Positions 51,244 through 61,760 of a DNA stretch of 64,000 nt are shown here, piece by piece (the first letter of the stretch is position 1; every line of letters begins with the position of its first letter). A program made the translations under genes and the position numbers. The stretch spans positions 5,331,001-5,395,000 of the forward strand of contig NZ_CP109067.1 in NCBI RefSeq assembly GCF_035917335.1, given 5' to 3'. The notes beneath the pieces are model-generated. The model saw only the letters and a list, made by a program, of their open reading frames with translations, did no database searches and had not been told where the DNA came from. Source of the DNA: Micromonospora sp. NBC_01813 (GTDB lineage: Bacteria; Actinomycetota; Actinomycetes; Mycobacteriales; Micromonosporaceae).

Positions 51244-52317
51244 GTGAGCGTCGCGTTGGTTACCGGTTCCGGTGGTCTGATCGGATCGGAGGCGGTCCGG
51301 CACTTCGCCGGCCTCGGCCTGGACGTGGTGGGCATCGACAACGACATGCGCCGCGAGTTCTTCGGCGCCGAGGCGTCCACCGCCTGGAATGTGGCCCTAC
51401 TGCAACGTGACCTTGGTGCCGCGTACGCCCATCAGGCGGTGGACATCCGCGACCGCGACGCCCTGGCGGGCCTGTTCCGCCGATACGGCCGGGACATCGC
51501 CGTGGTCATCCACACCGCCGCCCAGCCGTCGCACGACTGGGCGGTCCGCGACCCGTTCACCGACTTCGACGTCAACGCCGGCGGCACCCTCAACGTGCTG
51601 CAGAACGTCCGGGAACACTGCCCCGAGGCGCCGGTGATCCACTGCTCGACCAACAAGGTGTACGGCGACCGACCGAACAGCCTGCCGCTGGTCGAGCAGG
51701 AGACCCGGTGGGAGATCACCCCGGACCACCCGTACGCCGGTGGGATCACCGAGGACATGTCGATCGACGCCTGCCTGCACTCGGTCTTCGGCGCGTCGAA
51801 GGTCGCCGCCGACATCATGGTGCAGGAGTACGGCCGCTACTTCGGCATCCGTACCGCCTGTTTCCGGGGCGGCACGCTGACCGGGCCGGCGCACTCGGCG
51901 ACCGAGCTGCACGGCTTCCTCGGCTACCTGATGCGCTGCAACATGGAGCGGCGGACCTACAAGATCTTCGGGTACGGCGGCAAAATGGTCCGCGACGCGA
52001 TCCACAGCCACGACGTGGTCTCCGCCTTCGAGGCGTTCTTCCGCGACCCGCGCCCGGCGGCCGTCTACAACCTCGGCGGCGGCCGGCACTCCAACTGCTC
52101 ACACCTGGAGGCGTTCGCCCTCGCCGAGCAGATCACCGGTGAAGCGATGATCACCGAGTATCAGGAGGCCAACCGGGTCGGCGACCACCAGTGGTGGATC
52201 GGCTCGAACGCCGCCTTCCAGCGCGACTACCCGGGCTGGAAGCAGGTCTACGACGTGCCAATGATCCTGCAGGAGATCTACCAGGCCAACGTCGACAAGT
52301 GGATGCCGCAGAAATGA
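51244..52317 (+). CDS. NAD-dependent epimerase/dehydratase, CDP-paratose/CDP-tyvelose epimerase-like
   Basis: 357 aa, GTG start with CAGGAGTG upstream. Extended SDR fold: nucleotide-binding [34 protein letters not shown], and the active-site region with [10 protein letters not shown] and [18 protein letters not shown]. In place of the usual YxxxK the sequence reads SVFGASK, as in the CDP-tyvelose epimerase subgroup, in which the Tyr lies in an unusual context. [21 protein letters not shown] and the C-terminal [12 protein letters not shown] also fit that subgroup. Probably makes a sugar nucleotide for surface glycans. Overlaps the next gene by 4 nt. Confidence 0.82.
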
Positions 52318-53120
52318 TCGACCAGGGCAAGCGCAACGTCCTCGGTGTGCTGGTCGACGCCGTCGACTACGAGGCCGCTGTCGGCCGGATCCTCGACGCC
52401 GCCCGGGAGCGTCGCCCGCTGGCGATGACCGCGCTCGCCGTACACGGGGTGATGACCGGGGTGCTCGACCCGGCGCACAACGCCCGACTCAACTCGTTCG
52501 ACCTGGTCACCCCGGACGGCCAACCGGTGCGCTGGGGGCTGAACCTGCTGCACGGCGCAGGTCTTGCCGACCGCGTCTACGGGCCGACGCTGACCCTGCG
52601 GGTGCTGCAGCGCTGCGCCGACGAAGGGCTGCCGGTCTACCTGTACGGATCCACCGAGGAGACGCTGGCCCGGCTGGTGCCGAACCTGGAGCAGCAGTTC
52701 CCGGCGCTGAAGTTGGCCGGGGTCGAGCCGTCGAAGTTCCGTGCCGTACAACCTGGCGAAGAGGTGGAGATCGCCGAACGGATCCGGGCTTCCGGGGCCC
52801 GCCTGGTGCTGGTCGGGCTGGGCTGCCCGCGCCAGGAAATCTTCGCGTACGCAATGCGCCCGCTGCTGGACATGCCGCTGATGGCGGTCGGCGCCGCCTT
52901 CGACTACCACGCCGGCCTGCTGCGCAAGCCGCCATCGTGGATGCAGCGGTACGGCCTGGAGTGGCTGTGGCGGCTCGGGCTGGAGCCGAAGCGACTCTGG
53001 CGCCGGTACGTGATCCTCAACCCGGCGTACCTGAGCCGGCTGGGCGCGCAAAAACTGGGCGTCTGGCAGGCCACCCCACCGCCGGCAGCCACCGACCGCC
53101 CCGCCACCTTCGCCGTCTGA
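52314..53120 (+). CDS. WecB/TagA/CpsF-family glycosyltransferase
   Basis: 268 aa from the ATG at 52314 (ATGA overlap with the epimerase stop). GT26 motifs: [49 protein letters not shown], and [58 protein letters not shown], the family signature. The C-terminal Arg-rich helix ([21 protein letters not shown]) is the expected membrane-association element. Transfers a HexNAc-type sugar to a lipid carrier; acts with the upstream epimerase in surface polysaccharide synthesis. Confidence 0.9.
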
Positions 53121-53230: not shown

Positions 53231-53289
53231 CGAGTGGAGGGCTGGGGTACCTAATTCTCGCGGAATTACGTACCCCAGCCCTCCACTCG
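53231..53289. terminator. Large two-tier inverted repeat
   Basis: 20-nt perfect arms (CGAGTGGAGGGCTGGGGTAC at 53231-53250 and its complement at 53270-53289) enclose a second stem TAATTC/GAATTA (53252-53257, 53263-53268). It sits between the convergent glycosyltransferase and the hypothetical gene at 53376. Likely a bidirectional terminator, but the perfect symmetry and AT-rich inner stem also suit a small mobile palindrome. Confidence 0.75.
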
Positions 53290-53375
53290 CGCCCGGACGT
53301 CGGGGGGAGCACAGCCTGGCGTATGGGCCTGTGACCGGCGGGGGCGTCGTCCTGGTTGGCACTGCTATTCAATGG

Positions 53376-53675
53376 CTACGCCGCTGGCCGCGATTCTTCG
53401 GCCTGCCACCAGGCCACAGCTCTGGCGGCGAAGTCGGCGACATCTACGTCGGTAAGGTCGAGCCCGAAGTGGCCCTCAATCCTGTCACGCAAGAAGCGCG
53501 CGAGGTCGTCCGCGTCTGCCCCGGCGGCCAGCCTCGTCAGTAGCGGTCCGAGTAGACAGTCGTACTCGTCGTCGCCAGCGTAGAGCTCCCCAACACCGAG
53601 GTAGTTCCAGTCGTTCAGCATCTGGCGCAGCACCTTTGTCCGGAAACGGAGTTGCGCCCTCACGGCATGCTCCAT
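53376..53675 (-). CDS. Hypothetical acidic helical protein
   Basis: 99 aa from the ATG at 53675, preceded by AAGGAGC; the frame stays open to 53846 but without a ribosome-binding site. MEHAVRAQLRFRTKVLRQMLNDWNYLGVGELYAGDDEYDCLLGPLLTRLAAGADADDLARFLRDRIEGHFGLDLTDVDVADFAARAVAWW. The pattern (short N-terminal helix, acidic YDCLLGPLL segment, then FLRDRIEGHFG) resembles small conserved actinobacterial hypotheticals. No known function. It is the last gene of ordinary GC content before the low-GC island. Confidence 0.65.
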   Translation of the reverse strand: MEHAVRAQLRFRTKVLRQMLNDWNYLGVGELYAGDDEYDCLLGPLLTRLAAGADADDLARFLRDRIEGHFGLDLTDVDVADFAARAVAWWQAEESRPAA

Positions 53676-53890
53676 CGGCCTGCTCCTTCTGGCGTACGGG
53701 TCGGCGACCGCCCTGACGGTCTGTCGCCCGCAGGTAGGCTGCAACAGGTGGTCATCGACGATCAGCAGCCACCGCAGGACTACGGCTGCTTCCTTCCCGC
53801 AGATCCCTTCGCGTTGCCCGGCCCCGGGATCGGCGACTAGCGGCAACGCTTGTCAACTGTTGCCGGGTGCAGGTCCAGTAGCCTCTGCGG

Positions 53891-53977
53891 GTGGCTGACG
53901 ACGACTTCACTACTGATCCGGCTGTTCCCCTGGTGTCCGGATCTGCCGAGATGAGTGTCCCATCCTCGCCGAATTGA
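53891..53977 (+). other. Possible 28-codon open frame at the island edge
   Basis: GTG at 53891 to TGA at 53977 reads MADDDFTTDPAVPLVSGSAEMS and seven more residues. No good ribosome-binding site. It could be the stub of a host gene cut by insertion of the island that starts here, or chance. Confidence 0.2.
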
Positions 53978-53991
53978 CTCGTGCAGCATTA

Positions 53992-54561
53992 CTAAACTCT
54001 CAGCGCAGGATGGCGGCGGATCACTGCCGCATCGATGGAGTAGACGAATGCGCGGCTGACTCTAACGGCCTTCATCGCCGTCGCAACTCCCGCGACCAGC
54101 ATGCGCCCAGCCGAATGCACATCAAGGATTGTTCGCAGTCGCCTCTTTAGGTCAATCATCGCCTCAAGCTTTACAACCTGAATATCCGTAAGCTGCATGT
54201 TTCCGTGCACGACGGCGTTTCGAAAATCAATCAGTGTAAGGAATTCTTGGGTCTCCTTCGTCCCTGCGATGGAGACATCGAAGCCACGATCGAGCCAACC
54301 AAGTCGACGGTCCCATGATTGACTCAAGGTTGAACGCACCTCACTGATTAGAGCGCCTCCGAAGCGCGAGGTACTCACGTCACTTCCATCAACTAACTCT
54401 TTAACTACGCGATCAACGTGTGCTTCTACAGTCGTGGCGCACGCCAGCACTGTCCACCTCACCGCCTCTCCGTCATATGCCTGCTTGGCCACGGCGGCCA
54501 AATCCACAAGGCATTGCCCGCCAGACCTCGTCACGAGGCCGGGATTTGACTGACTCCCCAT
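53992..54561 (-). CDS. HEPN-type protein paired with a reverse transcriptase
   Basis: 189 aa, ATG at 54561. All-helical by pattern. Residues 107-120 read FLTLIDFRNAVVHG; R114-N-A-V-V-H119 is an RX4-6H motif, the catalytic signature of HEPN ribonucleases and abortive-infection proteins. Upstream, TVLACATTVEAHVDRVV resembles the first HEPN helix. The gene overlaps the 3' end of the reverse transcriptase by 31 nt in another frame, so translation is coupled. GC content is far below the surrounding chromosome. HEPN domains are fused to the reverse transcriptase in AbiA; here the two parts appear to be separate genes. RNase activity is inferred. Confidence 0.65.
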   Translation of the reverse strand: MGSQSNPGLVTRSGGQCLVDLAAVAKQAYDGEAVRWTVLACATTVEAHVDRVVKELVDGSDVSTSRFGGALISEVRSTLSQSWDRRLGWLDRGFDVSIAGTKETQEFLTLIDFRNAVVHGNMQLTDIQVVKLEAMIDLKRRLRTILDVHSAGRMLVAGVATAMKAVRVSRAFVYSIDAAVIRRHPALRV

Positions 54562-56063
54562 TCGTACGCCTTTTTGTTTAGGATGCTCTCATCACGTACT
54601 GCTCGGATCAATCTGTTAGGGACAGTCTCCTGTCGTCCAATCGCCGCAGCAATAGCCGGCTGGGTCAGTTGGGAGGCTTCCCGGTAGGCGAGGGATAGAG
54701 CATTTGCGTCAAGGAGACCGTGTTGGGCAGTAACCCAAACGGCTTGTGCGCGCACCGTCTCGTGGCGGTCTAGCAACTGCTCTCTCAACCAGGTTGCGAT
54801 AGTCTGCCCAGACTCAGTATCGGGCGGAACTGGCATTTGGCTTAAAGTGTGAAGCAGCCAGAGAGAGGCCCAGGCCCCGCGTCGAACGTTGCTAATCATG
54901 CCACCCAGAGTTCGGAACGTCTTATCCAAATCATCAACCTGTGCGCGATTGATGATGTACAGACAGACCTGTTCGAGTTGAGTCGGGTGGGCAAATGCCA
55001 AGTCGCGGAGAAGGTCGTCCGGCAGACGCTCCGCGTACGCGGAAAGTCCGGTGACACCAAGGCTAACCGCTTGCACAAGATCTGCGGCTTCCTTCGACTC
55101 TGAGCCGTGAGTGACATATGCCCGATGCCAGTCGTGGAGCATCTTCCATAGGGCCGCTTGCGTTACATCTTGGAGGTGTTCGACAACCTCATCCAGCTCC
55201 TCCACGTCGCCATACGGACCGCGCAGTGTTCTTATGATGACTCGAAATGTCGTTTGCTTCGCATCATTGAAGTAGCGCCGCAGGACCGAATTCTTCTGGT
55301 CCCGTGCTACCCGGAGCTTGTCGCTCCTGAAAACGCGAGTTTTCTCGCTATTTAACGTCAAGCCGAGTTTGCGGGCGCATTCGGCGGCGCGATCGATAGC
55401 ATCGTTTCCTTCATGCCAAGACCTGGCAAGTATCCGCATATCGTCTACGTAACGGATAACATCCAGTCCTTCGCGCGCGAGCTGTCTTACCATTATGTCG
55501 AGATAGGCATCCGCAAGCCGGTCGCTTGCCCAATGCATCTGAGGTATCCCACAGTCTCGGCCCACCATCGACTTGAGCAGGCGAACAAGAGTCTGACTCG
55601 CAGATACATCTGACGACCGAACTATCAGTTCCCTTTCAAGCTGGCTATGCTCGATGTACTCGTAGCATGACGCTATGTCAATCTGAGCGACATAATCGGT
55701 GTGTGCTTCGCATCCGAAGGATTCGTAGTCTTGCCAATTATCGCCGGTTCTAGTCGGCTCAGGAAGATGCGAATCAAGTGAGGCTACGAGCGCATGATAG
55801 AGAACGCGGGCGGCAGGCTCCGCCAAGACGGCCGGACGTGATCCGAAATCCTTTCTCGGCATGGCCAATATTTCTCTGCCAACAGTCCAGCCTCGGGTGT
55901 ACATAGCCTTGGCCAGTTTGGCGAGTTCATCCGAAGCATCTGACAAAACGTAGTCAACGACTAACGGCGGAAACCGGTCTAGCCGCCCATTCACAACAAC
56001 TGCTGAACTACGCACTAGACCTAGACTTTCCAGCGCCGCTTGTTTCGCCTGGAAAATATCCAT
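54531..56063 (-). CDS. Reverse transcriptase of the defence/UG-Abi type with helical C-terminal half
   Basis: 510 aa, ATG at 56063 with GGGAGAG upstream. RT motifs: QIDIASCYEYI (first Asp, D129), GIPQMHWASDRLADAYLDI (172-190), RYVDDMRILARS (YVDD 205-208, catalytic D207/D208), and LGLTLNSEKTRVF (~234-245). There is no group II intron maturase domain (X/En) and no retron-type VTG region that I can identify. Residues ~260-510 are helical repeats (AYAERLPDDLLRDLAFAHPTQLEQV, VRAQAVWVTAQHGLLDANALSLAYREAS) like the alpha-rep region of Abi and UG reverse transcriptases. Overlaps the HEPN gene by 31 nt. Low GC indicates transfer. Probable antiphage role. Confidence 0.85.
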   Translation of the reverse strand: MDIFQAKQAALESLGLVRSSAVVVNGRLDRFPPLVVDYVLSDASDELAKLAKAMYTRGWTVGREILAMPRKDFGSRPAVLAEPAARVLYHALVASLDSHLPEPTRTGDNWQDYESFGCEAHTDYVAQIDIASCYEYIEHSQLERELIVRSSDVSASQTLVRLLKSMVGRDCGIPQMHWASDRLADAYLDIMVRQLAREGLDVIRYVDDMRILARSWHEGNDAIDRAAECARKLGLTLNSEKTRVFRSDKLRVARDQKNSVLRRYFNDAKQTTFRVIIRTLRGPYGDVEELDEVVEHLQDVTQAALWKMLHDWHRAYVTHGSESKEAADLVQAVSLGVTGLSAYAERLPDDLLRDLAFAHPTQLEQVCLYIINRAQVDDLDKTFRTLGGMISNVRRGAWASLWLLHTLSQMPVPPDTESGQTIATWLREQLLDRHETVRAQAVWVTAQHGLLDANALSLAYREASQLTQPAIAAAIGRQETVPNRLIRAVRDESILNKKAYEWGVSQIPAS

Positions 56064-56343
56064 CTCTCCCGAATTCCACCGTTTCTATCTCGACATATTT
56101 CAGATGTCCACCCTATATGCCCATGTCGAGCAGTCACCAGCGGACAGGAGGGCCTAATGCGCCGGCCGCCGCACTCTTCTGCCGCAGATGTGGAGCGCCA
56201 GGCGTTGAGCCAGGGTCACGTACAGTTGTCCCATGCTCGGGCCGGGCAGTCGGGTCCCGGTTCCTGCGTGCAGGATGATCATGGCATGGAGTACCTTGAC
56301 CTGACGCTATGTCGCCGTTTCGCACCCCGGTAAGCAAGCGAGG
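56064..56343. other. Divergent intergenic region of the defence island
   Basis: 280 nt between the leftward reverse transcriptase and the rightward nucleotidyltransferase genes. Open frames here (for example 56134-56379 reverse, 56157-56333 forward) are short, Arg/Pro-biased and unlike known proteins. It must hold both promoters. A structured RNA used by the reverse transcriptase could lie here, but I see no clear long hairpin. Confidence 0.5.
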
Positions 56344-56364
56344 GTGGAAAGGAGTCTGGTTGCA

Positions 56365-57138
56365 TTGACCCGCTACCATGACCCCATGGAGTTCCTCGCT
56401 GGCTCGTACACACGGTCCACAGCCGTGCGTCTAGTCAGTGACGTGGACGTCGTGGATGTCTTGGCGCAGCCCGGGGTTGCCGACCGGGTCTCTAGCAAGC
56501 TGACCAAGTACTACGACAAGATCACGGGCTCTGCGGTAGATGGTCATGTCTCACCGATGCAGCCCATCGACTTACTGCTCCAGGCGTTGGGGCGGGTGAG
56601 TCGGAACCCTCCCGCGTGCACTTCCAGGTCGATCGAGATCGATTTTTGGCCAAGTGACGCTGCGGTAGATCTCATCCCCGCACTTGGCGACTCGGATCAG
56701 CAAGGCTCGCCCTCAGGGCCTAGCCGGATAATCCAGGACCTCTACCGATCGCTTCCGAAGAAGCTGTCACGGGCCGAGCGGGACCTAGCCGAGTCCGCAA
56801 CCGTGGAGCGGCTCCATCGATACATTGCGAGCCGCTGCGCCGTATCCTCCGGTACAACTGCCGGCAAGTCAGTGTTCTTCGCCCTCCAGGTTCTCGTCGC
56901 GGAAGCGCCCACCGCATCTGCACAGGCCTGGTCCCGCATTGACATAGGGCGCATGCTGGCCCGGCGCGCGAAGCTCATCCTCCGGCGAATGTTGGGCCAA
57001 CCGGCTCCCGAACCGACGCCTGCTCGGCTTCCGGCCTCCAACGTTGACCTCTCGATCGAAAGCCATCGCAGCCGTGCGCCTGGAAGTACCCGAAAGATCT
57101 CGCCATCCCTTGTCTTTCGGGAGCTAGCGGCTAGGTAG
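56365..57138 (+). CDS. CD-NTase-like (CBASS-type) nucleotidyltransferase
   Basis: About 257 aa if started at the TTG at 56365, which has GGAAAGGAG at correct distance; a GTG at 56344 and an ATG at 56386 are alternatives. The sequence FLAGSYTRSTAVRLVSDVDVVDVL contains the GS motif and DVD metal-binding pair of the nucleotidyltransferase fold, spaced as in CD-NTases; AAVDLIPAL supplies the third acidic residue. A helical second half (AERDLAESATVERLHRYIASRC...) follows. The N terminus is shorter than usual for CD-NTases, so the start may be missed or the gene truncated. Such enzymes make cyclic oligonucleotide alarm signals. First of three co-oriented genes. Confidence 0.65.
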   Translation: MTRYHDPMEFLAGSYTRSTAVRLVSDVDVVDVLAQPGVADRVSSKLTKYYDKITGSAVDGHVSPMQPIDLLLQALGRVSRNPPACTSRSIEIDFWPSDAAVDLIPALGDSDQQGSPSGPSRIIQDLYRSLPKKLSRAERDLAESATVERLHRYIASRCAVSSGTTAGKSVFFALQVLVAEAPTASAQAWSRIDIGRMLARRAKLILRRMLGQPAPEPTPARLPASNVDLSIESHRSRAPGSTRKISPSLVFRELAAR

Positions 57139-57169
57139 ATCCGCGCTCCCTCGTTTGCGGGAGCTACAC

Positions 57170-57460
57170 ATGCCAATCTTGCTTGCGGATCTGCTCGATC
57201 GACTGCCTCCAGCCGCCCTCGTCGCTCTGGGGGTGGCCTACCTCGTTTATCGAACGGTCCGGCACCTTCTCGACTCTCCCCTCTCCATCGCAACGATCTT
57301 CGGCGTGCTGGGCGGGTCGGAGCGTCGGAAGGACGCCATCGAGATCGTGGACAAGCTTTGCGCCGGAGACGAGAACAAGACAGCCATCGAGCAGGCATCG
57401 TCGGTTCCCCGGCGGTGGGGCCGCCACCGAGGCGCAAGAGACGGTGACAGGCGATCTTAA
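57170..57460 (+). CDS. Small single-span membrane protein of the nucleotidyltransferase operon
   Basis: 96 aa from the ATG at 57170 (CGGGAG upstream); starts 31 bp after the nucleotidyltransferase stop. One hydrophobic helix (AALVALGVAYLVYRTV, ~15-30) then LLDSPLSIATIFGVLGGSERRKDAIEIVDKLCAGDENKTAI and a basic tail. The tail (RRWGRHRGARDGDRRS) may be read through from a frameshifted end. No known family recognised. Position suggests a partner or effector of the upstream enzyme. Confidence 0.5.
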   Translation: MPILLADLLDRLPPAALVALGVAYLVYRTVRHLLDSPLSIATIFGVLGGSERRKDAIEIVDKLCAGDENKTAIEQASSVPRRWGRHRGARDGDRRS

Positions 57461-57579
57461 GGCCGTCACACAGCCGCTAGCTGGTGATTCGGGTTGTCCC
57501 CGATGAACCGCGTGGTCGAACGCTACGCGATCGTGGTCCCGGCATACCGGAACGTGTCCGCTGGCTCTACATTGAGCCG

Positions 57580-58335
57580 ATGCCAAAGGGACAAGTTGTC
57601 TTCGCGATCATCACCGCCATTCTGGGTGCAGCTGGCTTGGCTTGGACGATCATCTGGGCGCTGCGAAGCTGGCGACAGTCTGGGCCGATGGTTGCTGTGC
57701 AGATGGCTGTGGGGGACGTCTATGACGAGCAGGACCAGCTCGTGGTGGACTTTAAGACCGGCAGCAAGCGGGCTATGCGGGTTGAGAAAACTCATCCAGA
57801 GGTGAAGCCGAAACGGCGGTGGAAGGGTGAGCCGGACCCCCGGCACAACAGCAGGCAGCCTGTGAATGCGATCTTCGTGCAGAATCGTGGACGGGCCGCT
57901 GTGACGATCCGCCGGTGTGAGTACTTGTCGCCCATGGGCTCGGCAGGCTTGTCGTTCGAACCGCAACCTGCGGCCATCGTTTGGGGTAATCTGCTCCCCA
58001 AGCGGCTTGAGCCTGGCGATGAGGCGATCATCGTGCATGAGCGAACCCAGATGAACGTCTTTCTCGAAGGGGTGATGCGGGACCATGGAGTCAGGCGGAC
58101 CCTGCTTTTGGCCGTGATCACCCTGGGCAGCGGTCACGAGATATCGGCTGACACGCCGCTTGTCATCCAGGCAGACATGAGCGACGCTCAGTTTGCGGAG
58201 TTGAGAAAGAACTTCACCAAGGAGCACCGTGAAGGGACGATCGACCCGTTCCCCCACGTGAGCGGGAAGCGTCGGTTGCCATGGCCGCGGAAGCGGAAGC
58301 AGACACTCATTGCTCGGAATTGGGCCGAGGATTAG
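57580..58335 (+). CDS. Membrane-anchored beta-rich protein, candidate effector
   Basis: 251 aa from the ATG at 57580; earlier in-frame codons lack a ribosome-binding site. One N-terminal transmembrane helix (VVFAIITAILGAAGLAWTIIWAL, ~6-28), then a soluble part rich in beta strands (VNAIFVQNRGRAAVTIRRCEYLS, LSFEPQPAAIVWGNLLPKRLEPGDEAIIVHE, TLLLAVITLGSGHEISADTPLVI) resembling an Ig-like or barrel sandwich, and a basic C-terminal tail. Membrane-anchored beta-barrel proteins such as Cap15 are CBASS effectors; this protein has a comparable layout but no sequence match that I can claim. 119 bp after the previous gene. Confidence 0.55.
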   Translation: MPKGQVVFAIITAILGAAGLAWTIIWALRSWRQSGPMVAVQMAVGDVYDEQDQLVVDFKTGSKRAMRVEKTHPEVKPKRRWKGEPDPRHNSRQPVNAIFVQNRGRAAVTIRRCEYLSPMGSAGLSFEPQPAAIVWGNLLPKRLEPGDEAIIVHERTQMNVFLEGVMRDHGVRRTLLLAVITLGSGHEISADTPLVIQADMSDAQFAELRKNFTKEHREGTIDPFPHVSGKRRLPWPRKRKQTLIARNWAED

Positions 58336-58633
58336 CACCACAACCGATCGACGACGCTCCACGGACGAGCGTGGATGGGTCCGAGCCATACACCGGGTCC
58401 CCAAGGGGGTCTTCGAGAGCGCCTCGGCCAGGAACGGCATGGTCCCCGAAGCTCAACGTTCCACCGTTCGGCGACAACGTTTGCGCCAGCCTAATCAGGC
58501 GCGCACATCTGCCGCGATCCGGTGCGAGCGCCTGACCCAGCTGCTGCGGAGCGTAGTCGACAATGCGTTGCGCAGTGCTCTGGCCGTGCGCTTCGCGAGA
58601 GCGCGGAGCCTTGCCGCGAACTCGGCAGCGGGA
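58336..58633. other. 298-nt stretch without a supported gene
   Basis: Between the membrane protein stop and the GntR gene stop, which converge. Several short frames are open on both strands, but none has a ribosome-binding site, plausible composition or a recognisable protein. No strong hairpin was found. Confidence 0.5.
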
Positions 58634-59628: not shown

Positions 59629-60027
59629 GTGCGCAGACTGTTTGACCTGTTCCGTCGCCCGCCGCTGCGGCGTAGCCGCCGCCACCGCCGGCTGCTCGCC
59701 GAAATCGCCGAACACACCCGCAACGCCGCACAAGCGGCTGCCGTCCAGCCACAGCCGGTGCGGCGTGCCCCGAACGCCGTCGCCCACTACTACGGGCGGC
59801 CGGTGCGGCCGTCGATCAGCCCCGGCATGGTCCGCGACCGTCAGTTCGGCGACCGTGTCCGGCGCGGTTGCGACCCCACCGAGGTACGCACGTTTCTGTA
59901 CCTGGTCGCCGACGAGTTGACCGCGCTGCGTGCCGAGTTGCGCTCCACCCAGGACGAGAATCTGCGGGTCAAGCAGGCGTTGCGGGACTGGCAGTCGGAG
60001 CAGTTCCAGGCAGGGATGACGGTGTGA
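59629..60027 (+). CDS. DivIVA-motif small coiled-coil protein
   Basis: 132 aa from the GTG at 59629 (GAAAGGTGG upstream). A basic N terminus (MRRLFDLFRRPPLRRSRRHRR), a Pro-rich middle, then residues ~70-125 reading MVRDRQFGDRVRRGCDPTEVRTFLYLVADELTALRAELRSTQDENLRVKQALRDW. RRGCDPTEVRTFLYLVADEL is the DivIVA/Wag31 N-terminal signature (RRGYDxxEVDxFL), followed by a short coiled coil. Too short to be the polar growth determinant Wag31; probably an element-encoded DivIVA-like adaptor. Its stop overlaps the next GTG by 4 nt. Confidence 0.7.
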   Translation: MRRLFDLFRRPPLRRSRRHRRLLAEIAEHTRNAAQAAAVQPQPVRRAPNAVAHYYGRPVRPSISPGMVRDRQFGDRVRRGCDPTEVRTFLYLVADELTALRAELRSTQDENLRVKQALRDWQSEQFQAGMTV

Positions 60028-61760
60028 CCGGGGTCAACGGAGTGCCGGCCGGCTCGGTCCGCGTCGTCGGGTTCGGGTCCGAGCGGCGGCGGGCGCAACT
60101 CGTCTTCACCGTCGCCAACCTCGACACCGGTGCGGTCGTGTCGACCAGCCTCGTGCCGGGCACGTTCACGCCGCTGCCGACGCCGGGCGGCACCTGGTGG
60201 CTGCCGTACGCGCCGATCGTCACCGACCTCGCAGCCCGCGCGGGCGTGGCTGCGGCGACGCTGCGCGACCCGGACTTCCCCGACGAACCCGGGCGGCAGC
60301 CGTCCTCCGGGCTGATGCTGCCGATCCAGTGGCAACCCGGCATCCCCGAACGGGACCGCCACAAGTGGGAAGCCGTCGCGCTCGCCGACCGGCGCAGCAC
60401 GCCGTGGCTGGTCCTGCTCGGCCGCGCCACCGAGCCGCCGGCACCCGACCACCCTCGGCTACTCGGCCGGCTGTGCGCCCTCGCCGATCAACTACACGTC
60501 GACCTGGTGATCGAAGCCCGGCCCAGCTCCACCAAGGGCGGTCTGAGCTGGGACATCCGGTTCGAGCTCGCCGGCGGGAAAGTCCCCGACTACGCCCACC
60601 GCTGGGCGACCGACCTGCCGACGGCGCTCGCCAGGATCAGCCCGCAACTCGCCGCGTCCGGCCTGGCCGTCGCCGACCGCGACACCCCTGCCCACTACCT
60701 GACCGACGATGCGCTCACCCCACACCCGACGCCGGTCGGACTCGGCGGCCACGACCTCGACCAACTCGAACGCCGGATGCTCGCCGACGCCGAACAACAC
60801 GGCGGCGCGCAGGCCATCTGGCGCAACCGGCACTGGTGGCACAACAGCCTGCGACCGGCCGAAACCGACGGCCGATTCGTACGCGGCGGGGAGCCACCGG
60901 CCCCGAAACACTGGGCCGAGGCGATCCCTACCCACCCCTGCACCCGCTGCACCCAGGCGGTCGACCCGCCGTACTGCCTGGACTGTTACGGCACCCGCCG
61001 GGTCCGGCGCGGCGCGGTCGTCACCGTCACTGACCTGCGCGGCCGGACCGTGCACCGCAACTGGCGACCCGACGACGCCACGCCGACTCTCGTCCACACC
61101 GACCGACAGTCCGGCACCAGCGTGTGGCAACTGCCGGAGCACTATCAGATCGGCGCGTTCGCGGCGGAGTTCGGCGTACCGCCGATTGACCTGACCGACC
61201 TCGACGGCGAGCATGTCGTCGACCAGCACCTGCGCCTCGGTGTCAGCCAGCTCGCGCCCGGCGGCGGTGACCCGGTCGGTGCGTACCTCGGTGAAATCGC
61301 CGCCACCCACGACGGCGCCCGCATCCTCGCCCGCACCAACGACTGGCCCGGCCCCACCCTCGACGAGGTCGCCCGCCTCGTCACCGGCCTCGGGCTCGCC
61401 CTGGACATCACCGTCGTCGACCACCGCGACAGCATCGGCCGGCCGGAGCTGATGCAGGGCCACACCTGGTCGGTCCAGGTCGCCGAGCCGGCCAGCCCGC
61501 CACCCGTCGACCCGTTCCCGACCTGCGCCGCCCTGCCCGAAGCCGTCGCGCTGTGCTACCGCTACCTCTACGGCGCACTACGCGCCACCATCCCTACCGA
61601 CCCCGAACAGCCGATGTCCGTCCCACAACGGCCCGCGTCGGCAGGTCCAGCACCCGACACCACCAGCTTCATCACCGAGGTACGCCGCCTCGCCGCTACC
61701 CACCCCGGCACCCCCGCCACCATCCGTATCCAAACCGACGACACCCACACCACCACGTAG
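60024..61760 (+). CDS. Large protein of unknown function with zinc-ribbon motif
   Basis: 578 aa from the GTG at 60024 (GTGA overlap with the DivIVA-motif gene). No signal peptide or membrane helices. Residues ~1-300 are mixed alpha/beta (VRVVGFGSERRRAQLVFTVANLDTGAVV, WLVLLGRATEPPAPDHPRLLGRLCALADQLHVDLVIEARP). HPCTRCTQAVDPPYCLDCYGTRR near residue 310 has four Cys in a CxxC-x(9)-CxxC zinc-ribbon spacing. The remainder includes a beta-rich stretch and an acidic/Thr-rich tail. I recognise no family. Coupling to the DivIVA-motif protein and control by a minimal GntR suggest an element-borne module. Confidence 0.6.
   Translation: MTGVNGVPAGSVRVVGFGSERRRAQLVFTVANLDTGAVVSTSLVPGTFTPLPTPGGTWWLPYAPIVTDLAARAGVAAATLRDPDFPDEPGRQPSSGLMLPIQWQPGIPERDRHKWEAVALADRRSTPWLVLLGRATEPPAPDHPRLLGRLCALADQLHVDLVIEARPSSTKGGLSWDIRFELAGGKVPDYAHRWATDLPTALARISPQLAASGLAVADRDTPAHYLTDDALTPHPTPVGLGGHDLDQLERRMLADAEQHGGAQAIWRNRHWWHNSLRPAETDGRFVRGGEPPAPKHWAEAIPTHPCTRCTQAVDPPYCLDCYGTRRVRRGAVVTVTDLRGRTVHRNWRPDDATPTLVHTDRQSGTSVWQLPEHYQIGAFAAEFGVPPIDLTDLDGEHVVDQHLRLGVSQLAPGGGDPVGAYLGEIAATHDGARILARTNDWPGPTLDEVARLVTGLGLALDITVVDHRDSIGRPELMQGHTWSVQVAEPASPPPVDPFPTCAALPEAVALCYRYLYGALRATIPTDPEQPMSVPQRPASAGPAPDTTSFITEVRRLAATHPGTPATIRIQTDDTHTTT

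What the first reader, a model, noticed from the sequence alone, without database searches (positions are those of the whole stretch)
53992..56063. Reverse transcriptase plus separate HEPN gene: a possible split AbiA-like defence system
Seen in sequence: a 510-aa protein with RT motifs (D129, YVDD 205-208, GIPQ) and a helical C-terminal half, overlapping by 31 nt a 189-aa helical protein with an RX4H motif (R114, H119). Established: Abi/UG reverse transcriptases act in phage defence, and AbiA fuses an RT, helical repeats and a HEPN domain in one chain. Inference: here the HEPN effector is a separate coupled gene, so the RT could make or sense a DNA product that keeps the HEPN RNase off until infection. 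GC content is clearly lower than in the flanks, as expected for transfer. I do not know of this exact two-gene arrangement being described in Micromonosporaceae.
Basis: partly seen in the sequence, partly recalled or inferred. Interest (0 to 1): 0.88.

Follow-up and report, generated by a model that had tools for sequence, protein, structure and literature searches.

The report
Phage-defence reverse transcriptase with HEPN partner
A soil actinobacterium carries a horizontally acquired two-gene cassette, a DNA-making reverse transcriptase and a probable RNA-cutting HEPN enzyme that travel together in many relatives; the pairing is already listed in a defence database, but how the two enzymes work together is unknown and testable.

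Summary
On the minus strand, 54531-56063 encodes a 510-aa RT and 53992-54561 a 189-aa HEPN protein, overlapping by 31 nt. PADLOC-DB (2023) already has models for both: RT_UG22 (7e-135) and RTasHEPN (5.5e-35). The pair is a catalogued defence-RT arrangement, not a new one. It is not a split AbiA: the RT scores 449 bits for UG22 and 31 for AbiA, and no AbiA-type HEPN is among the Pfam matches of 32 HEPN proteins. New here: the HEPN gene lies next to the RT in 46 of 55 distinct UG22-like loci; HEPN-positive RTs form one side of a well-supported branch; HEPN R-N-x3-H and the RT catalytic D and DD are invariant; no third gene and no family-wide ncRNA was found. The cassette is low-GC cargo in a slot that varies among seven congeners. 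Best reading: the RT gates a HEPN RNase effector, as in type IX retrons but without their winged-helix protein or a detectable ncRNA. That mechanism is inferred (about 0.5). One relative has an IS-broken RT with an intact HEPN, so a simple 'HEPN kills without RT' is not supported.

The parts
54531..56063 (-). UG22-type defence reverse transcriptase, 510 aa: RT core (D129, GIPQ 172-175, YVDD 205-208) and a C-terminal HEAT/alpha-repeat-like half
53992..54561 (-). RT-associated HEPN protein, 189 aa, motif RNAVVH (R114, N115, H119), conserved upstream acid E46
54531..54561 (-). 31-nt overlap of the RT 3' end with the HEPN 5' end (translational coupling is inference)
56064..56153 (-). RT leader with a stable predicted hairpin (z -3.16); no upstream sequence similarity to relatives found; role unknown
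53376..58440 (.). variable cargo slot that holds the pair, a nucleotidyltransferase-motif ORF and a membrane-protein-like ORF; approximate limits
51244..53120 (+). conserved left marker of the slot, matched in 6 of 6 congeners
59868..61760 (+). conserved right marker of the slot, matched in order in 6 of 6 congeners

Best explanation
A two-gene UG22 defence-RT operon acquired by horizontal transfer. Shown: both genes are intact, overlapping and co-inherited, with invariant catalytic residues. Inferred: the RT, alone or with a DNA that it makes without a dedicated ncRNA template, binds the HEPN protein (probably a dimer) and holds it inactive. A phage component or phage damage disturbs the RT or its DNA, freeing the HEPN RNase to cut RNA, perhaps tRNA, and stop growth so that the phage cannot spread (abortive infection).
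For: Family: PADLOC RT_UG22 7e-135 and RTasHEPN 5.5e-35; 32 of 32 HEPN members match RTasHEPN, and 11 of 32 match Pfam HEPN_RiboL-PSP, best 2.3e-6. Co-inheritance: all 10 HEPN-positive genomes of 397 are among the 14 RT-positive ones (P 4e-17, taking genomes as independent, which they are not). HEPN lies next to the RT in 46 of 55 distinct loci. The 32 HEPN-positive and 8 HEPN-less RTs are split by one branch, SH-aLRT 100. RT and HEPN distances correlate, r 0.60, 0 of 2000 permutations as high. RT D129, D207 and D208 are invariant in 40 of 40; HEPN R, N, H and E46 in 32 of 32. dN/dS 0.05-0.33 in six close pairs. No ORF family other than RT and HEPN occurs in more than 5 of the 32 loci. HEPN model pLDDT 93.1, mostly helical. 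Precedent: type IX retron Kva2, where an RT-DNA complex sequesters a HEPN RNase until a phage protein binds (PMC13405049, passages).
Against: No activity data. In one Micromonosporaceae genome (L041) the RT is cut by a 1.5-kb IS3-like insertion while the HEPN ORF with its motif stays intact, awkward if free HEPN is always toxic; loss of HEPN expression, or function of the remaining RT piece, could explain it. AbiA's HEPN also carries an R-X6-H motif yet did not cut the RNAs tested (PMC11077055, passages), so a motif does not prove RNase activity. Nearest neighbours of RT and HEPN disagree in 12 of 32. No RT fold, complex model or structure search could be made.
Confidence: 0.5

Rival explanations
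1. AbiA-like use: the HEPN protein is a structural partner that dimerises the RT and lets it make untemplated, protein-primed DNA; the DNA, not RNA cleavage, stops the phage.
For: AbiA's HEPN was inactive on tested RNAs, mediates the dimer, and its removal abolished polymerase activity (PMC11077055, passages). The RT has a repeat-like C-terminal half as in Class 1 UG/Abi RTs (alphaRep matches from 1.1e-7; HEAT_2 in 6 of 40; class definition from passages of PMC12489045). No family-wide ncRNA found.
Against: R, N and H of the motif and E46 are invariant in 32 of 32 divergent members, more than a dimer role would seem to need. HEPN-less UG22 RTs exist (8 of the 40 in A4), so the RT type does not require HEPN.
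Confidence: 0.2
2. Product-activated effector: the RT is idle until infection, then makes DNA that binds and switches on the HEPN RNase (opposite sign of control).
For: Both active sites are invariant. Intact HEPN beside an interrupted RT in L041 fits a HEPN that is harmless without RT product.
Against: No direct evidence for the direction of control; the type IX retron precedent is release from restraint (PMC13405049, passages).
Confidence: 0.2
3. RNA-templated (Class 2-like) system: a ncRNA next to the RT is copied, and the product or the RNA controls HEPN.
For: In L073/L077 the 150 nt before the RT start are 83% identical where synonymous sites are near saturation (dS 1.9), and the frames hold stops. 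The window RT leader folds better than shuffles over 90 nt, z -3.16.
Against: Among 40 upstream regions only L073/L077, the near-identical HEPN-less L074/L079 and one short match (L034/L067) exceed the highest shuffled score. No Rfam match in 53300-57600. The L073 element folds no better than shuffles and shows 0 compensatory pairs. Mean leader z over 40 loci is -0.23 (100 nt) and -0.53 (160 nt).
Confidence: 0.07

Closest known systems
PADLOC DRT models RT_UG22 and RTasHEPN (UG/Abi reverse transcriptases; the survey by Mestre et al. 2022 was not held and not seen)
   Same: Both genes are near full-length best matches of these two models; HEPN sits directly behind the RT.
   Different: No difference in kind found. 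A divergent member: RT at most 38% and HEPN at most 36% identical to any aligned relative. RT_UG22 as modelled also covers HEPN-less RTs (4 of 4 tested).
AbiA (Lactococcus)
   Same: A UG/Abi-type RT, a repeat-type helical domain and a HEPN domain in one system.
   Different: HEPN is a separate gene; the RT is not AbiA-like (31 bits); no AbiA-CTD-type HEPN match; RX4H here, RX6H in AbiA.
Type IX retron (Kva2)
   Same: RT and a separate small HEPN protein in one operon; HEPN the likely effector.
   Different: There: retron RT, msr/msd RNA, winged-helix protein, HEPN without the canonical motif (passages). Here: UG22 RT, canonical motif, no third shared gene, no ncRNA found.
HEPN-MNT toxin-antitoxin (recalled, not studied here)
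   Same: Canonical HEPN motif in a two-gene module.
   Different: Partner is an RT. The nucleotidyltransferase-motif ORF at 56344-57138 is peculiar to the window: a motif scan of ORFs of 80 aa or more in L032-L117 found it nowhere else.

Membership tests
UG22 defence RT with RTasHEPN (PADLOC) | RT scored best by the RT_UG22 model over its whole length | tested here: met
   7e-135, profile 3-476 of 476; next best UG21 2.1e-27
UG22 defence RT with RTasHEPN (PADLOC) | adjacent protein matching RTasHEPN | tested here: met
   5.5e-35, profile 5-147 of 148
UG22 defence RT with RTasHEPN (PADLOC) | protects against phage | not testable with these tools
   needs plaque assays
AbiA | HEPN domain in the same chain as the RT | tested here: not met
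   two ORFs; in the HEPN-positive loci RT and HEPN matches lie in different ORFs
AbiA | RT closest to AbiA | tested here: not met
   AbiA model 31.4 bits against 448.7 for UG22; TIGR04499 20.4 bits, cut-off 250
AbiA | HEPN_AbiA_CTD type HEPN | tested here: not met
   not among the 9 families matched at E 0.1 by 32 members; that the model is in this Pfam copy is recalled
Type IX retron | winged-helix partner | tested here: not met
   no further ORF family (100 aa or more, BLAST 1e-8) in more than 5 of 32 loci; some flanks are short
Type IX retron | retron RT and msr/msd RNA | tested here: inconclusive
   RT is UG22; no Rfam match and no shared upstream RNA, but a divergent RNA cannot be excluded
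Type IX retron | separate HEPN effector gene | tested here: met
   that it is the effector is inference
Catalytic HEPN superfamily (features from passages of PMC3710099) | Rx4-6H with a polar residue after R | tested here: met
   R-N-x3-H in 32 of 32
Catalytic HEPN superfamily (features from passages of PMC3710099) | conserved upstream acidic residue | tested here: met
   E46 in 32 of 32; the Ex3[KR] spacing was not tested
Catalytic HEPN superfamily (features from passages of PMC3710099) | helical HEPN fold | tested here: inconclusive
   mostly helical model with one beta hairpin, pLDDT 93.1; HEPN Pfam families matched by 11, 3 and 1 of 32; no structure search possible
Catalytic HEPN superfamily (features from passages of PMC3710099) | RNase activity | not testable with these tools
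   needs protein
Class 1 UG/Abi RT | HEAT-like repeats fused to the RT | tested here: inconclusive
   RT profile matches designed alphaRep proteins, best 1.1e-7; HEAT_2 in 6 of 40 members at E 0.01; no RT fold made
Class 2 UG/Abi RT (ncRNA-templated) | conserved ncRNA next to the RT | tested here: inconclusive
   no family-wide upstream similarity, one 145-nt exception

The most novel reading that the evidence does not exclude
UG22-HEPN is a third way of wiring an RT to a HEPN domain: neither fused and structural (AbiA) nor an RNA-DNA retron cage (type IX), but a polymerase without a dedicated ncRNA whose own untemplated or self-primed DNA is the switch for a HEPN RNase. The pairing may have arisen once, in Actinomycetota, beside HEPN-less UG22 relatives, with accompanying differences at RT positions 136, 145, 425 and 439.
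Probability: 0.3. Interest if true: 0.8.

Novelty: new member of a known kind. Interest (0 to 1): 0.45.

Why it matters
What the DNA made by Class 1 Abi reverse transcriptases does in defence is unresolved (stated in a passage of PMC12632851). A UG22 pair with a separate, apparently catalytic HEPN would give that DNA a readable output (RNA cleavage), and HEPN-less sister RTs give a natural control. It would also extend the retron idea of RT-restrained HEPN toxins to another RT family.

Tried and rejected
Split AbiA: rejected on RT and HEPN profiles. Group II intron RT: rejected, 449 bits for UG22 against 64 for the group II model. Nucleotidyltransferase-motif ORF 56344-57138 as a third component: rejected, its motif is in no other ORF of L032-L117 and it points the other way. 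ncRNA: no Rfam match in 53300-57600, no family-wide upstream conservation. The first upstream comparison used mechanical starts that are wrong for L083 and L078; re-anchored the starts. Phages: no RT or HEPN match. Viral contigs: 7 pattern matches, none a relative. Plasmids: 19 records with an RT match, of which three were opened: two Rhodococcus plasmids have the pair, one Rhizobium plasmid has no HEPN hit. A first genome-contig scan with the single RT found no relative. A script whose output was cut by a pipe lost its hits and was rerun. The comparison of the C-terminal RT piece of L041 was out of register and is not used. The neighbour scan has no background control and its family lists were capped at 25 of 167 (PADLOC) and 25 of 68 (Pfam).

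Rows dropped: L037, L057, L083, L084, L086 and L087 duplicate (or are duplicated by) other loci and each pair was counted once; L050, L051 (plasmids), L041 and L076 (broken RTs) were left out of A3/A4. Of loci L032-L117 and the window, 50 rows (44 distinct) had an RT score of 270 bits or more and 32 rows had 127 bits or less, none of these 32 with HEPN; the threshold was set in that gap after seeing it. Two of the 32 were typed by PADLOC, L044 as UG32 and L089 as UG19; L070 is a fragment of a UG22-like RT at a contig end and cannot show a HEPN gene; the other 29 were not typed. L137 (229 bits with the 40-row profile) has no HEPN and is counted as a miss.

Full report
Observation. The RT matches Pfam RVT_1 at 2.7e-11; the HEPN protein alone is below Pfam's cut-offs (HEPN_Apea 0.034). 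G+C falls to 0.54-0.56, and third-position GC of the two genes (0.57, 0.59) is the lowest of 43 mechanically chosen ORFs of 180 aa or more in the window, median 0.84.

Identity. PADLOC-DB 2.0.0 names the RT as RT_UG22 (448.7 bits, near whole profile) and the partner as RTasHEPN (118.7 bits), both described as DRT. The pair was thus catalogued by 2023; reading the name as 'RT-associated HEPN' is mine. Mestre et al. 2022 was not held. Full-text searches for UG22 with HEPN, UG22 alone, UG20/UG21/UG22/RTasHEPN with reverse transcriptase, and related terms (listings capped in 9, 11 and 87) listed no paper that is evidently on this pair. That is no proof that none exists.

Association. In 397 genomes of the order, RTasHEPN was found in 10 and RT_UG22 (E up to 1e-30) in 14; all 10 are among the 14. 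Of the other four, one (G234) is a UG32 RT and three lie in the HEPN-less sister clade. In 396 genomes of the phylum, 7 matched RTasHEPN, only the window's genome and G702 strongly; five were weak (9e-4 to 2.5e-9), and the four of these that were fetched (L046-L049) gave no RT hit; the fifth was not examined. Pooling order, phylum, plasmid and genome-contig loci, 44 distinct loci had RT scores of 270 bits or more with a profile of my own; 36 have the HEPN gene next to the RT (two of them, L041 and L076, with a broken RT) and 8 do not. A search of 354 Micromonosporaceae genomes gave 20 RT places besides the window: 18 had HEPN directly downstream, one is the interrupted locus of G091 (its HEPN lies beyond that short locus and is seen in L041), one (L137) had none. 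Eleven of these places are new, ten with HEPN, hence 46 of 55 overall. In the 32 loci of alignment A3 the HEPN ORF overlaps the RT by 4-62 nt in 25 (exactly 4 nt in 10), starts 4-5 nt after it in 2, and has a mechanical start more than 100 nt inside the RT, so uncertain, in 5.

Evolution. On a quick maximum-likelihood tree of 40 RTs, the 32 HEPN-positive and 8 HEPN-less RTs are separated by one branch with SH-aLRT 100 and no bootstrap; 0 of 500 label shuffles did as well. HEPN-positive loci with a named organism are all Actinomycetota; the HEPN-less ones include Gemmatimonadota, Chloroflexota, Pseudomonadota and Actinomycetota. Other phyla were not searched for the HEPN model (searches failed). 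PADLOC calls the four HEPN-less members tested UG22 too. The root is not inferred, so gain and loss of HEPN cannot be told apart. RT and HEPN distance matrices correlate (r 0.597; 0 of 2000 permutations reached it, maximum 0.183), and nearest neighbours agree in 20 of 32; the 12 disagreements leave room for some partner exchange or noise.

Active sites. RT D129, Y134, G172, P174, Q175, D207, D208 and K241 are invariant in 40 of 40. HEPN R114, N115, H119, E46, W83 and T125 are invariant in 32 of 32. These meet the sequence features of a catalytic HEPN given in PMC3710099 (passages). In six close pairs dN/dS is 0.05-0.31 for RT and 0.06-0.33 for HEPN, with dS 0.95-2.2. HEPN-positive RTs have [YF]xDD (one TADD) and HEPN-less ones HGDD (8 of 8); Y136, E145, W425 and A439 are typical of HEPN-positive RTs, which may simply mark the clade. 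The HEPN model has pLDDT 93.1 and the motif lies near the end of helix 102-120. The RT could not be modelled and no structure search was possible.

No RNA found. Upstream regions re-anchored on a conserved RT residue show nothing above the shuffled maximum except L073/L077, the near-identical HEPN-less L074/L079, and one short match L034/L067. In L073/L077 the 150 nt before the RT start are 83% identical, without compensatory pairs and without unusual stability; what it is remains unexplained. The window's own RT leader folds into a hairpin better than shuffles (z -3.16 over 90 nt; over 280 nt z -0.14); it is one of 5 of 40 leaders below z -2 at 100 nt, where the mean is -0.23. Rfam gives no match in 53300-57600.

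Natural knock-out. In L041 (G091) the RT is 98% identical to L036 in both pieces but split near residue 404 by 1522 bp carrying an IS3-like transposase (family by recall); HEPN is full length, 93% identical, with its motif. HEPN shows relatively more amino-acid changes than RT (15 of 26 against 10 of 34 nucleotide changes; Fisher p 0.036), weak evidence of relaxed constraint, since HEPN also evolves faster in most intact pairs. In L076 (a metagenome assembly) the RT reads in two frames with HEPN intact; this may be an assembly error.

Setting. Both flanking markers lie in the same order 4.5-9.9 kb apart in 6 of 6 congeneric genomes, none with a hit of the window RT at 1e-15. The contents between differ from the window's and among most of them, though G386 and G1009 look alike and G347 shares two genes with them. 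So the pair is cargo of a variable slot. Elsewhere, 128 neighbour ORFs of 24 HEPN-positive loci include strong matches to pPIWI-RE (2), RmrA (2), MzaA (2), JetC (1), a cytosine methylase (1) and serine recombinases (3), beside many ordinary genes. This suggests defence islands in some loci, without a background control.

Mechanism. The data establish two conserved enzymes under joint selection. That HEPN is the RNase effector gated by the RT is an inference from HEPN biochemistry in general, from motif invariance, and from type IX retrons (PMC13405049, passages). AbiA points another way, since its HEPN did not cut the RNAs tested (PMC11077055, passages). The direction of control (release from restraint or activation by product) is open, and the L041 case fits the second a little better. 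I put restraint at 0.5, product activation at 0.2, a structural HEPN at 0.2 and an RNA-templated variant at 0.07.

Novelty. The kind is known; this is a divergent member (nearest aligned RT 38% identical).

Noticed in passing
window 53231-53289: A palindrome with 27-nt arms (96% complementary) and a 5-nt loop is a dispersed element: 12 half-site matches at 7 places in the window's genome, and matches in five of six congeners (none listed for G1006).
   Followed up: partly
window 56344-57138 (+): ORF with a nucleotidyltransferase motif (GSYTRS...DVD), weakly matching oligonucleotide-cyclase models (best 3e-5); matches cover at most residues 9-120, so the rest may be truncated or shifted.
   Followed up: partly
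window 57484-58335 (+): 283-aa ORF with a hydrophobic segment near its N terminus and no match in Pfam, PADLOC, NCBIfam or PHROGs at the limits used.
   Followed up: no
L073:5688-5835 and L077:5688-5835: About 145 nt upstream of the RT is conserved though apparently non-coding, where synonymous sites are near saturation; no covariation seen.
   Followed up: partly
L041:7005-8528: IS3-like insertion inside a UG22 RT with the HEPN partner left intact.
   Followed up: yes
L034, L035, L053, L054 flanks: Several neighbouring gene families are shared by three or four of these RT-HEPN loci (HD-domain-like by eye, NUDIX, others), which suggests a common insertion neighbourhood in different families.
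   Followed up: no
L074, L079: Very similar HEPN-less UG22 RTs with similar upstream DNA and a shared upstream gene in a Gemmatimonadota and a Chloroflexota metagenome bin: recent transfer or binning error.
   Followed up: no
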